Made by a program: the position numbers and the translations under genes. 64,000 nucleotides of DNA. Source: Agaricus subrufescens (taxonomy: Eukaryota; Basidiomycota; Agaricomycetes; Agaricales; Agaricaceae). Numbering within the stretch: position 1 is the first letter of the stretch; every line of letters begins with the position of its first letter. The notes under the pieces were generated by a model that worked only from the letters and a program-made list of their open reading frames with translations, was not told the DNA's origin and did no database searches. Location: NCBI GenBank assembly GCA_029945375.1, contig CM057059.1, positions 124,001-188,000 on the forward strand, in the 5' to 3' direction. Shown here one piece after another: positions 42,241 through 56,679 of this stretch.

Positions 42241-42397
42241 CCGGATAGGTGATAGTTGAATGACGCATGAGGCTCACACGCGGGGTGGTCACAACTGCAT
42301 ACACGGGGTCGTGTGTCATTTCTCACGGTGCCTATAAAGGGAGACTTGGCTATTACAGTACTATTGTACTTGTTCATGTTTTTATAGATATTGGTGA
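42241..42397 (+). repeat. left terminal inverted repeat of the KDZ element
   Basis: Pairs with the right end (56523-56679). It contains CGGGGTGGTCACAACT, CGTGTGTC and a CCTATAAAGGGA box, all also present at the other end, so both termini could carry a TATA-like promoter facing inward. Confidence 0.85.
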
Positions 42398-42410
42398 ACA
42401 TTCATATTGA

Positions 42411-44706
42411 GTGAAGAGTATGATGGTATTGTCCTCTTCAGAGAGTGTAGAGTACAGGTATACTCTTCCCAGCAGAGGAGAGTGCAGAGTACAGTTATAC
42501 TCTCCCCAGCAGAGAGTGCAGAGTATGGTGGTACTCTCACCAACAGACAGTGCAGAGTATGGTGGTACTCTCACCAACAGACAGTGCAGAGTACTCACCA
42601 ACAGACAGTGCAGAGTATGGCGGTACTCTCACCAGCAGAGAGTGCAGAGTATGGCGGTACTCTCACCAGCAGACAGTGCAGAGTACGGTGGTACTCTCAC
42701 CACCAGAGAGTGCAGAGTACGGCGGTACTCTCACCACCAGAGAGTGCAGAGTACGGCAGTACTCTCACCACCAGAGAGTGCAGAGTACGGCAGTACTCTC
42801 ACCACCAGAGAGTGCAGAGTACGGCAGTACTCTCACCACCAGAGAGTGCAGAGTACGGCAGTACTCTCACCACCAGAGAGTGCAGAGTACGGCAGTACTC
42901 TCACCACCAGAGAGTGCAGAGTACGGCGGTACTCTCACCACCAGAGAGTGCAGAGTAAGGCAGTACTCTCACCACCAGAGAGTGCAGAGTACGGCGGTAT
43001 TCTCACCAACAGACAGGGCAGAGTAAGGCAGTACTCTCACCAACAGACAGGGCAGAGTACGGCAGTACTCTCACCAACAGAGAGTGCAGAGTACGGCGGT
43101 ACTCTCACCAACAGACAGGGCAGAGTATGGCGGTACTCTCACCAACAGACAGGGCAGAGTACGGCGGTACTCTCACCAACAGACAGGGCAGAGTACGGCG
43201 GTACTCTCACCAACAGAGAGTGTAGAGTACGGCGGTACTCTCACCAACAGAGAGTGCAGAGTACGGCGGTACTCTCACCAACAGAGAGTGCAGAGTACGG
43301 CGGTACTCTCACCAACAGAGAGTGCAGAGTACGGCGGGTGCACTCTCACTCTCAAACAGAGAGTGCAGAGTACGGCGGTACTCTCACCACAGAGAGTGCA
43401 GAGAGGTACTCTCACCAACAGAGAGTGCAGAGTACGGCGGTACTCTCACCAACAGACAGAGAGTACGGCAGAGTACGGCGGTACTCAGAGAGTGCAGAGT
43501 ACGACAGTACTAGACAGTGCAGAGTACGGCGGTACTGAGAGTACGGCGGTATTCTCACCAGCAGACGGTGGTACTCTCACCAGCAGAGAGTGCAGAGTAC
43601 GGCGGTACTCTCACCAGCAGAGAGTGCAGAGTACGGCGGTACTCTCACCAACAGACAGGGCAGAGTACGGAGGTACTCTCACCAACAGACAGTGCAGAGT
43701 ACGGCGGTACTCTCACCAACAGAGAGTGCAGAGTACGGCGGTACTCTCACCAACAGAGAGTGCAGAGTACGGCGGTACTCTCACCAACAGAGAGTGCAGA
43801 GTACGGCACTCTCACCAACAGAGTGCAGTGCGGCGGTAGAGTACGGCGGTACTCACCAACAGAGAGTGCAGAGTACGTACGGCGGTACTCTCACCAGCAG
43901 AGAGTGCAGAGTACGGCGGTACTCTCACCAGCAGAGAGTGCAGAGTACGGCGGTACTCTCACCAGCAGAGAGTGCAGAGTACGGCGGTACTCTCACCAGC
44001 AGAGAGTGCAGAGTACGGCGGTACTCTCACCAGCAGAGAGTGCAGAGTACGGCGGTACTCTCACCAACAGACAGGGCAGAGTACGGAGGTACTCTCACCA
44101 ACAGACAGGGCAGAGTACGGAGGTACTCTCACCAACAGAGAGTGCAGAGTACGGCGGTACTCTCACCAACAAAAAGTGCAGAGTACGGCGGTACTCTCAC
44201 CAACAAAAAGTGCAGAGTACGGCGGTACTCTCACCAACAAAAAGTGCAGAGTACGGCGGTACTCTCACCAACAAAAAGTGCAGAGTAAGTGCAGAGTACG
44301 GCGGTACTCTCACCAGCAGAGAGTGCAGAGTACGGCGGTACTCTCACCAGCAGAGAGTGCAGAGTAGGGCGGTACTCTCACCAACAGAGAGTGCAGAGTA
44401 CGGCAGTACTCTCACCAACAGACAGTGCAGAGTACGGCGGTACTCTCACCAACAGACAGTGCAGAGTACGGCAGTACTCTCACCAACAGACAGTGCAGAG
44501 TATGGCGGTACTCTCACCAACAGACAGTGCAGAGTATGGCGGTACTCTCACCAACAGACAGTGCAGAGTACGGCGGTACTCTCACCAACACAGAGTGCAG
44601 GGTACAGCAGTACTCTCACCAATGCAGAGTGCAGAGTACAGCAGTACTCTCACCAACAGACAGTGCAGAGTACAACAGTACTCTCACCAACACAGAGTAC
44701 AGAGTA
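42411..44706 (+). repeat. left 34-base minisatellite array (about 65 units)
   Basis: Head-to-tail copies of a 34-base unit whose core is GAGTAC-GGCG-GTACTC, followed by TCACCAACAGAGAGTGCA or close variants. Each core is a 6-bp stem with a 4-base loop. Variants cluster in runs: TCACCACC near 42690-42990, TCACCAGC near 43900-44050 and AACAAAAAG near 44165-44290. A ragged stretch at 43320-43560 contains partial units. As 34 is not a multiple of three and the unit lacks stops, all three plus frames stay open over long distances; the resulting long frames are not genes. Confidence 0.95.
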
Positions 44707-44759
44707 CAGTGGGCATAGCATCACCACACTACATAATAGTGAATAATAAATTCAATAGT

Positions 44760-55311: not shown

Positions 55312-55630
55312 GGGTTCGTTATTGTTACCTCTTTCGAAGATCTAAAGCCTGAGCCAATTTCGAGTCCTGGTATGTTTATTTATCTCCTAATCTTATGATG
55401 CATGCTGATGTTTTTTTACTTGTACCTGCTAAGTACTAGTTTGTGATGTGTAAGTAGAGTATATAAGAGATAGCCTCGGTGTATGGTTTTTGTCGAAAGA
55501 ACGATTTTTTTGGCAAGCATTTGGTGTGATACCTAATAAGCACATATATGTTTTGCTTAATGCATAATGGTTACCAGTATGACAATACTTGCAATGTCCA
55601 CCTGATGCTATTTGACATGCGATGAGTATG
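55312..55630. other. transposon interior, 3' flank of cargo gene 2
   Basis: No gene seen; leads into the diverged inner units of the right minisatellite array. Confidence 0.5.
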
Positions 55631-56407
55631 ACAATACCCACTGTGTTCAAGAGCAGTGAGTACAGTCATACTCAACCAAGTGATAGGGGGAGAGTATGAT
55701 GATACTTGCCACTTGCAGGAGCAGTGAGTACAATGATACTCACACCATTTGGTGGTTGCAAGTATGGTGATACTCACACTGTTCAGTGGGTAGGGAAGAG
55801 TATGGCTCTCTGTACAGTCTGTTGGTGAGAGTACCACTGTACTCTGCACTGTCTGTTGGTGAGAGTACCACCGTACTCTGCACTGTCTGTTGGTGAGAGT
55901 ACCGCCGTACTCTGCACTCTCTGCTGGTGAGAGTACTGCCGTACTCTGCACTCTCTGTTGGTGAGAGTACCGCCGTACTCTCTGCTGGTGAGAGTACCAC
56001 TACTGCACCTCTCTGACACTCTGCAGTACTGCAGTACTGCAGTACTCGCAGCACTCTCTGAGGTACACTCTGCACTCTCAGTACTCTGCCTGCACTTTAG
56101 TACTCTGCACTCTGTTGGTGAGAGTACCGCCGTACTCTGCACTCTTTGTTGGTGAGAGTACCGCCACTCTGCACTTTTTGTTGGTGAGAGTACCGCCGTA
56201 CTCTGCACTTTTTGTTGGTGAGAGTACCGCCGTACTCTGCACTTTTTGTTGGTGAGAGTACCGCCGTACTCTGCACTTTTTGTTGGTGAGAGTACCACCG
56301 TACTCTGCACTTTTTGCTGGTGAGAGTACCACCATACTCTGCACTTTTTGTTGGTGAGAGTACCACCGTACTCTGCACTTGAGTACTGCCATACTCTGCA
56401 CTCAATA
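55631..56407 (-). repeat. right 34-base minisatellite array, inverted relative to the left array
   Basis: On the minus strand the same 34-base unit as at 42411-44706, about 17 recognisable copies from 55803 to 56407. The inner part (about 55631-55800) contains diverged versions of the GAGTAN4GTACTC-type core, and a scrambled segment lies at 55990-56110. Six or so consecutive units carry the AACAAAAAG variant that also occurs as a run in the left array. Confidence 0.92.
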
Positions 56408-56522
56408 CCCTCTACTCCATTTCATGATTGCTACAGCCATACTACTATACTGGATAGGTGAGTACTCTGATACTCCTTGTGTTCAGATAGTCGAGAGCAC
56501 TGTGGTACTCTGCACGGTTATA

Positions 56523-56679
56523 TCTATGAAAATGTGACCAAGTCCAATAGTACTGCCCTGCTCCAAATAAACAACTTTCCCTTTATAGGGACCGTGGGAA
56601 TTAGACACACGAGCCCGCGTATGTAGTTGTGACCACCCCGCGTGTGAGCCTCATGCGCCATTCAAACGTCCCCTGCCCC
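56523..56679 (-). repeat. right terminal inverted repeat of the KDZ element
   Basis: Reverse complement of the left end. The two diverge mainly in the outermost ~15 bases and near the inner limit. Between the array and the repeat (56408-56522) lies a short spacer with further GAGTACT(C) words. Confidence 0.85.

What the first reader, a model, noticed from the sequence alone, without database searches (positions are those of the whole stretch)
42241..56679. KDZ transposon framed by inverted arrays of a hairpin-forming 34-base minisatellite
Seen: ~155-base terminal inverted repeats, then a 2.3 kb array of 34-base units on the left and the same unit inverted on the right, enclosing a KDZ transposase and cargo. 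Known: KDZ elements have terminal repeats and 8-base target duplications and often carry extra genes in fungi. Inference: the arrays are an expanded subterminal transposase-binding region, or sites that fold or recombine during transposition. I do not know of a KDZ element described with satellite arrays as large as this at both ends.
Basis: partly seen in the sequence, partly recalled or inferred. Interest (0 to 1): 0.93.

Follow-up and report, generated by a model that had tools for sequence, protein, structure and literature searches.

The report
Mushroom transposon with phased palindrome arrays
A large mushroom jumping gene carries, at both ends, long rows of one short mirror-image DNA motif spaced 33-34 letters apart; relatives keep the motif and the spacing while the letters between them change, which points to docking sites for a protein that moves or controls the element.

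Summary
The element is 42242-56679, with a perfect 8-bp target duplication (AATCCATC), ~150-bp terminal repeats, and a KDZ transposase with a CxC4 zinc cluster. Inside each end lies an array of the palindrome AGTA-N6-TACT every 34 bp: 59 exact sites left, 21 right, 1 outside the element, 0.75 expected per 64 kb. The genome holds 1630 such spaced pairs against 0 for the reversed control. Nine independent insertions with perfect 8-bp duplications carry them at both ends; 18 of 18 regions fetched beside a companion gene (ORF2) hold the motif. Spacers differ widely between lineages, but palindrome arms and the 33-34 bp spacing persist, even in a sister family with AGTAGAATTCTACT. Within arrays the arms vary 5 times less than spacers. 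Single palindromes also sit at two element promoters. Best reading: binding-site arrays for an element-encoded dimeric DNA-binding protein, used for end assembly and probably self-regulation, as with Spm/TNPA. Hairpin strength is not conserved in the few units tested. Binding is untested; which protein binds is unknown. Multiple subterminal sites are known elsewhere; I found no KDZ report of them.

The parts
42234..42241 (.). target site duplication AATCCATC, left copy
   Evidence: 8 of 8 identical to the right copy
56680..56687 (.). target site duplication AATCCATC, right copy
42242..42391 (+). left terminal inverted repeat, alpha tip CGGATAGGTG
56520..56679 (-). right terminal inverted repeat, beta tip GGGGCAGGGGAC
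42357..42370 (.). palindrome AGTACTATTGTACT at the inner edge of the left terminal repeat; in 23 of 26 ends (duplicates D and H included) the first palindrome with at most one mismatch lies at a similar distance
42439..44707 (+). left array, period 34, 66.5 copies, 58 exact AGTAN6TACT sites
55818..56380 (-). right array, same unit inverted, 17 copies, 14 exact sites; further exact sites run from 55576 to 56461
44760..47878 (-). KDZ transposase gene, model of 7 exons (47406-47878, 47232-47358, 46858-47164, 45999-46804, 45746-45946, 45402-45698, 44760-45341), 930 aa, CxC4 + KDZ
   Evidence: computed model, no transcript
47908..47921 (.). single palindrome AGTATTCTCGTACT between the divergent transposase and ORF3 starts
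   Evidence: of 7 elements compared, exact in A, B, C, G, J, K; one mismatch in I
47983..49325 (+). ORF3, model of 4 exons, 392 aa: CHVCPG...CAC cysteine motif and a C-terminal region that looks like coiled coil (my reading); two segments scanned, no Pfam family over its cut-off
52263..52276 (.). single palindrome AGTACTGCTGTACT, starting 18-20 bp after the start of a TATATA box, upstream of ORF2
   Evidence: same place in A, B, C, I, J, K; no exact site there in G
53142..55311 (+). ORF2, companion gene; downstream exons 53349-53390, 53443-53499, 53557-53908, 53961-54023, 54075-54437, 54500-55311 (computed); a further first exon begins at or before 53142
   Evidence: the 5 homologues found are from Agaricus bisporus

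Best explanation
This is a three-gene KDZ transposon (CxC4-KDZ transposase, ORF3, ORF2) of an Agaricus-like mushroom. Its two ends are long arrays of a dimer-type protein-binding palindrome, AGTAN6TACT, repeated every 33-34 bp. Shown: the anatomy, the target duplications, the presence of arrays in the two-ended copies examined, the conservation of arms and spacing while spacers turn over, and single palindromes at two promoter regions of the element. Inferred: an element-encoded protein (the transposase, ORF2 or ORF3) binds the palindromes as a dimer. The regular spacing then lets many dimers line up into one nucleoprotein complex that marks and pairs the ends of a 14-kb element. The same protein binds the single promoter sites and so regulates the element's own genes. 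Tandem arrays expand and contract, and one end is copied onto the other by recombination, which explains why spacers differ between elements but agree between the two ends of many elements, and why the gene block is sometimes inverted relative to the tips.
For: Exact target duplications and one alpha plus one beta tip in 9 of 9 independent insertions (A, B, C, G, I, J, K, L, M; H is a duplicate of G, D of C). Sites at both ends of all nine. Modal spacing 34 in 32, 33 in 6, 24 in 1 of 39 arrays with at least 8 exact sites, close relatives such as A, B, C included. Register-based mismatch rate: arms 59 of 3280 (1.8%), spacer 720 of 7380 (9.8%), centre 13.3%, 410 units. Genome-wide: 1630 spaced pairs, reversed control 0. 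Census beside ORF2: 18 of 18 regions have the motif, 16 of 18 with 11 or more; among them L041/L043 and L050/L052 are near-identical pairs. Sister family P (KDZ segment 77%, CxC4 43%, ORF2 31% identical) keeps the 34-bp spacing with AGTAGAATTCTACT. Promoter palindromes. Mirrored flanking bases vary together within arrays (Mantel-Haenszel odds ratio 16.8 over 17 arrays). Independent precedents: Galileo tandem repeats hold extra transposase sites (PMC3688188), TNPA binds Spm subterminal repeats (PMC2613891), both read as passages.
Against: No binding data. Irregular spacings do not follow the helical repeat convincingly, so a stacked filament is not supported beyond the main period. Sister family P has no AGTAN6TACT site outside its arrays in the fetched stretches, which include the 7 kb around its transposase/ORF3 promoter. 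Spacers are not wholly unrelated between lineages (in-register identity 0.35 against a null of 0.25), so part of the shared period may be common descent. Four of 31 sites of a narrower pattern lie away from any known copy (compared by hand). About half of the 1630 pairs could not be located. The ORF2 structure model is unusable (pLDDT 38), so no DNA-binding fold was identified. The control with other KDZ clades is only two copies.
Confidence: 0.66

Rival explanations
1. The arrays act as single-stranded hairpins or cruciforms during transposition or replication (fold-back chemistry), and the palindrome is kept for base pairing.
For: Window units fold better than shuffles (z -4.7 for three units, -3.0 for one). 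Mirrored flanking bases covary within arrays (odds ratio 16.8).
Against: The one unit each of element G and family P that I folded does not beat shuffles (z +0.8 and -0.3; the G unit was cut with the palindrome at its end). In 3 of the 6 K, L and M arrays the majority bases just inside the arms do not pair (AGTAT...GTACT in K_R, M_L, L_R). At that position the within-array covariation is weak (odds ratio 1.6 over 35 arrays).
Confidence: 0.12
2. The arrays are chance minisatellites spread by slippage and carried along, without function.
For: Array length varies strongly (58 and 14 exact sites in the two arrays of the window); irregular spacings are common.
Against: Arms vary 5 times less than spacers. 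Modal period 33 or 34 in 38 of 39 arrays. Both ends of all nine target-duplicated elements have sites. Single copies sit at promoters of diverged elements.
Confidence: 0.07
3. The main role is recombination: long inverted arrays let the gene block invert and the two ends copy each other.
For: Gene block inverted relative to alpha/beta tips in B, C and G, not in A, I, J, K, L, M. Left and right spacers agree at 0.89-0.94 within A, B, C, F, I, J, and the inner terminal repeats cluster by element rather than by tip in I, J and G.
Against: In G, L, M and P1 the two arrays have different spacers (0.17-0.44) yet keep palindrome and period, which recombination alone does not need. Inversion explains homogeneity, not the conserved arms.
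Confidence: 0.08
4. The palindrome is a site for a host transcription factor or chromatin protein that the element recruits for expression or boundary function.
For: One copy sits 18-20 bp after the start of a TATA box in six elements.
Against: In a narrower genome-wide pattern, 27 of 31 spaced pairs lie within 30 kb of a copy of this element clade (by hand); a host factor would more likely have other paired sites. Single host sites were not counted.
Confidence: 0.07

Closest known systems
KDZ superfamily elements (Kyakuja-Dileera-Zisupton; Cryptococcus KDZ1-KDZ3)
   Same: KDZ transposase with a Cys cluster, terminal inverted repeats, 8-bp target duplications (PMC12810828, 12 of 34 passages shown: TIRs of 241, 139 and 169 bp, TSDs of 8 or 4-8 bp, CxC1).
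   Different: The words subterminal, tandem repeat and minisatellite occur 0 times in that text ('palindrom' occurs once and I did not see where) and in PMC12730594, where Kyakuja-1/2_LB are reported with 7-bp TSDs and no TIRs.
En/Spm (CACTA) elements with TNPA/TNPD
   Same: Many short subterminal sites at both ends; a DNA-binding protein other than the catalytic transposase binds them and regulates its own activity; motifs diverge between families (PMC2613891, passages read).
   Different: Ends, target duplication and transposase differ. Here the sites are palindromes in 33-34 bp tandem arrays up to 2.3 kb in the window. That ORF2 or ORF3 play TNPA's part is my inference.
[quoted passage not shown]
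   Same: Long internally repetitive terminal repeats; Galileo tandem repeats carry extra transposase sites shown by binding assays (PMC3688188, PMC3573991, passages read); Tetris repeats seed satellites (PMC4079207, passages); FB4 modules look like minisatellites (PMC4022104, passages).
   Different: Unrelated transposases. Repeats there are ~210 or ~220 bp in Galileo and Tetris; 'palindrom' occurs 0 times in those three Galileo and Tetris texts, and no fixed-pitch site with spacer turnover was described in the passages read.

Membership tests
KDZ superfamily | KDZ transposase domain above the curated cut-off | tested here: met
   PF18758 35 bits against 26.6 on one ORF; 30.6 bits on the 930-aa model
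KDZ superfamily | associated CxC zinc cluster | tested here: met
   PF18717 CxC4 E 6.8e-46
KDZ superfamily | 8-bp target duplication and terminal inverted repeats | tested here: met
   8 of 8 bases in 9 of 9 independent two-ended copies, and in H, a duplicate of G; F and N, rearranged copies, fail with 4 of 8
KDZ superfamily | active transposition | not testable with these tools
   no population or expression data
Foldback-like elements | long terminal regions made of tandem repeats in inverted orientation | tested here: met
Foldback-like elements | P- or Mutator-type transposase of the described families (recalled for Mutator) | tested here: not met
   the only Pfam transposase family found in the element ORFs that I scanned is KDZ
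CACTA / En-Spm | CACTA termini and 3-bp target duplication (from PMC2613891) | tested here: not met
   tips CGGATAGG and GGGGCAGG, 8-bp duplication
CACTA / En-Spm | separate element protein that binds the subterminal motif | not tested
   ORF2 and ORF3 are candidates by co-occurrence only

The most novel reading that the evidence does not exclude
A mushroom KDZ lineage has evolved a modular cis-code: one dimer palindrome at a fixed 33-34 bp pitch, read by an element-encoded accessory protein (ORF2 or ORF3) that both builds an extended complex over kilobases at the ends and represses or activates the element's own promoters. The array sequence between sites is free to be remade as a new satellite in each lineage and copied from one end to the other, with occasional flipping of the whole gene block, while palindrome and protein co-evolve between sister families.
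Probability: 0.3. Interest if true: 0.87.

Novelty: new variant of a known kind. Interest (0 to 1): 0.76.

Why it matters
It gives a natural experiment in which binding site and spacing look constrained while what lies between them turns over, so the cis-requirements of KDZ transposition, on which I found little in the library, can be read from sequence and tested directly. It points to a transposon clade that repeatedly makes new minisatellites of fixed pitch, and names two uncharacterised companion genes as candidate array readers. Related transposases are common in mushrooms (181 proteins at E <= 0.001, 120 listed), so the generality can be checked in many sequenced genomes.

Tried and rejected
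Helical phasing of irregular spacings: a second peak at 23-24 bp looked like one turn less. Over 233 deduplicated irregular spacings the vector length at 10.5 bp is 0.17, over 182 array-by-spacing votes 0.09 with a slightly negative cosine; against a uniform null the one-sided value was 0.02-0.03, which I do not trust because the excluded middle and the K/L/M clade shape it; dropped as inconclusive. Folding of the ORF2 C-terminal region: mean pLDDT 38 with 6 sequences; no fold search was run. Plavaka as the transposase of sister family P: by hand, no Plavaka hit lies within 30 kb inward of the 11 long P tips; L037 then showed a KDZ relative instead. F (C8:379233-382522) looked like a short array-only derivative that would prove a cis-role, but it has two alpha tips, inverted identical flanks and no target duplication, so I take it for a rearrangement and not as evidence. 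Long open frames across the left array in three + frames are, I think, a by-product of a stop-poor 34-bp unit, not genes. That is 2 copies only.
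Full report
What is there. The window lies in a 44.65-Mb genome of 44 contigs at C3:124001-188000. The matches of ORF2 and ORF3, and the best match of the transposase, are from Agaricus bisporus, so I take the organism to be an Agaricus or a near relative (inference). The element occupies 42242-56679 (14,438 bp) and is flanked by AATCCATC on both sides. Its terminal repeats are about 150 bp and 82% alike over the aligned part. A 34-bp array of 66.5 copies follows on the left and one of 17 copies, inverted, on the right. 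Between them are a KDZ transposase gene (7 exons, 930 aa, CxC4 and KDZ domains), a divergent gene ORF3 (392 aa in my model) and ORF2. The gene models are computed, without transcripts. ORF2's first exon lies further upstream than my 562-aa model, since a homologue's N-terminus matches from 53142.

The unit is not what is conserved. A terminal-repeat search gave 32 matches in the genome. I joined fetched stretches into 11 element regions A-K (A being the window; D and E hold one end only) and later fetched the ends of L and M and the whole of N. In all of A-K there are arrays with a period or sub-period of 33-34 bp, but with different units: for example AGTACCATGGTACTCTGCCTGCCACTGGGTGTAG in G, ACAGAGTACAGTTGTACTTCCCGCCTCTGGTGGG in J, GTGCAGAGTACGGATGTACTCTCTCCGTCCAGAG in I. 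Common to all is AGTAN6TACT. The first such palindrome, allowing one mismatch, lies 95-127 bp inside the repeat search hit in 23 of 26 ends listed (duplicates D and H included); the others are E_R at 68 (truncated), N_R at 262 (rearranged) and K_L, where a site lies outside the element.

Statistics. The pattern AGTAN6TACT-N17-22-AGTAN6TACT has 1630 matches per strand in the genome and 0 in the reversed control. Of these, 638 lie in the stretches A-K and L029-L035, and 183 in L036 and L038-L055. The other half I could not list, because only the first 100 places are printed. A narrower pattern gave 31 places. Compared by hand with the matches lie within 30 kb of a known copy, and 4 (two at C5:3065k, two at C12:821k) do not. 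Beside ORF2, 18 of 18 regions, chosen from the 54 ORF2 matches and none of them from A-N, have the motif. Sixteen have 11 or more sites; L038 has 4 and L053 has 2; L041/L043 and L050/L052 are near-identical pairs. Over 39 arrays with at least 8 exact sites the modal spacing is 34 in 32, 33 in 6 and 24 in 1. Left out beforehand were the duplicates D, H, L043 and L052 and the sparse L038 and L053; J_R and N_R, with 6 sites each, fell below the limit. Many of the 39 are close relatives (A, B, C; K, L, M). In units chosen by their neighbours' register and not by their own motif, the arms differ from the array's majority base in 59 of 3280 positions, the spacers in 720 of 7380. Spacers of 19 lineage groups agree in register at 0.35 against a shuffled 0.25: mostly unrelated, with some residue of common origin or of flanking preference.

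Ends. Tips come in two kinds, alpha (CGGATAGGTG or CGCATAGGTG) and beta (GGGGCAGGGGAC or close). All nine independent insertions with a perfect 8-bp duplication have one of each. All nine have palindromes at both ends; in J the right tip has only 6 exact sites, then about 10 kb of extra DNA, then the main right array. Inside the tip, the terminal repeats of the two ends cluster by element in I, J and G, and by tip in K, L and M. Left and right array spacers agree at 0.89-0.94 in A, B, C, F, I and J, 0.61 in K, 0.44 in P1, 0.33 in L and M, and 0.17 in G. So one end seems to be copied onto the other in some lineages and not in others. In B, C and G the transposase lies at the beta end, in A, I, J, K, L and M at the alpha end. 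Inversion of the gene block between the inverted arrays is the simplest cause (inference); B and C may share one event.

Sister family. A palindrome AGTAGAATTCTACT at the same 34-bp pitch marks a second family P (C1:992863-1019011, C10:1422249 and others; 13 terminal matches). Its beta tip begins GGGGCAGGGGAC too. It encodes a related transposase (KDZ segment 77%, CxC4 43%), ORF3 (34% over one exon) and ORF2 (31%). Pitch and outer arms are thus kept across strong protein divergence, while the centre has changed, and with it in three of five P arrays both flanking bases (C...G instead of G...C).

Promoter sites. In the seven elements with a fetched core (A, B, C, G, I, J, K) I count 16 exact palindromes away from the arrays, 12 of them at two recurring places (counted by hand). 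One place is between the divergent transposase and ORF3 starts (A, B, C, G, J, K exact; I with one mismatch). The other is upstream of ORF2, with a TATA box starting 18-20 bp before it (A, B, C, I, J, K); G has no exact site there. A, B and C are close relatives, so each place is seen exact in four lineages. That this TATA box drives ORF2 is inferred: ORF2's coding match begins about 0.9 kb further on. Family P shows no such site in the fetched stretches. This is why I rate self-regulation as probable only.

Hairpin or protein site. Single-strand folding is strong for window units but not for the one G and one P unit tested. The position just inside the arms varies almost independently on the two sides (odds ratio 1.6), while the flanking base varies together (16.8); the latter may reflect few unit types in higher-order repeats. 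A dimeric protein site explains both better than pairing does, but the second value keeps the hairpin reading alive.

Comparison. Multiple subterminal sites are known for other superfamilies: TNPA binds Spm subterminal repeats and regulates its own activity (PMC2613891), and the Galileo THAP domain binds repeats inside long terminal repeats, with the suggestion that repeats add specificity or affinity (PMC3688188, PMC3573991). All were read as passages. For KDZ I read passages of PMC12810828, PMC12730594 and PMC7473861; none of those passages mentions such arrays. Most subscription papers, including the 2014 PNAS paper on KDZ elements (recalled, not held) and the 2012 description of Zisupton (recalled), could not be read. 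So what it works like is a Spm- or Galileo-type multi-site end; what it belongs to is the KDZ superfamily.

Companion genes. ORF2 had 5 homologues in the protein search and ORF3 had 2 (there only the 7998 candidates sharing most words were scored), all from Agaricus bisporus. Neighbouring locus tags there (ORF2 AGABI1DRAFT_130798 with ORF3 _130799; ORF2 Agabi119p4_10713 with ORF3 _10714; transposase _10703 with ORF2 _10706) suggest the same module in a second species (inference from names). The transposase has 181 relatives at E <= 0.001, of which 120 were listed; the names that I recognise, such as Mycena, Coprinopsis and Laccaria, are mushroom-forming fungi. ORF2 or ORF3 are therefore the likelier array readers if arrays prove limited to Agaricus, and the transposase if they do not.

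Noticed in passing
57594-58388 (-): A Peroxidase_2 (heme-thiolate peroxidase type) ORF lies about 0.9 kb outside the right end of the element.
   Followed up: no
40866-41630 (-): 254-aa ORF just left of the element with no Pfam match; by eye it resembles the C-terminal part of fungal FunK1-type kinases (recalled).
   Followed up: no
L027/L028 (element K), L032, L034 (ends of L and M), L049: The beta-side arrays of K, L and M mix 33-bp with 23-24-bp spacings; L049 has modal spacing 24, tied with 33 at two each.
   Followed up: partly
G000:C1:5839508-5870461 (element C), G000:C1:1027703-1056523 (element J): C carries about 14-15 kb of extra DNA inside ORF2; J has about 10 kb of extra DNA between its inner right array and its beta tip.
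   Followed up: no
G000:C8:328788-383522 (F and N): F has two alpha tips with identical inverted flanks and no target duplication, and N shares much of that flank: probably a rearrangement in which an end and its flank were duplicated in inverted orientation.
   Followed up: partly
51520-51569 and 51931-51973: Short direct repeats in the core (23 and 21 bp); the text GCCCCCGATGTCC also recurs in a 49-bp repeat, and the 21-bp unit recurs, in other fetched copies (whose rows are pooled under one locus name).
   Followed up: no
G000:C5:3065286-3065367 and C12:821157-821238: Spaced palindrome pairs away from any ORF2, KDZ or terminal-repeat match found here; remnants or unlinked arrays.
   Followed up: no
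L030:2759-3511: Open frame that reads like a Ty1/copia RNase H end (recalled resemblance) just beyond the P1 alpha array.
   Followed up: no
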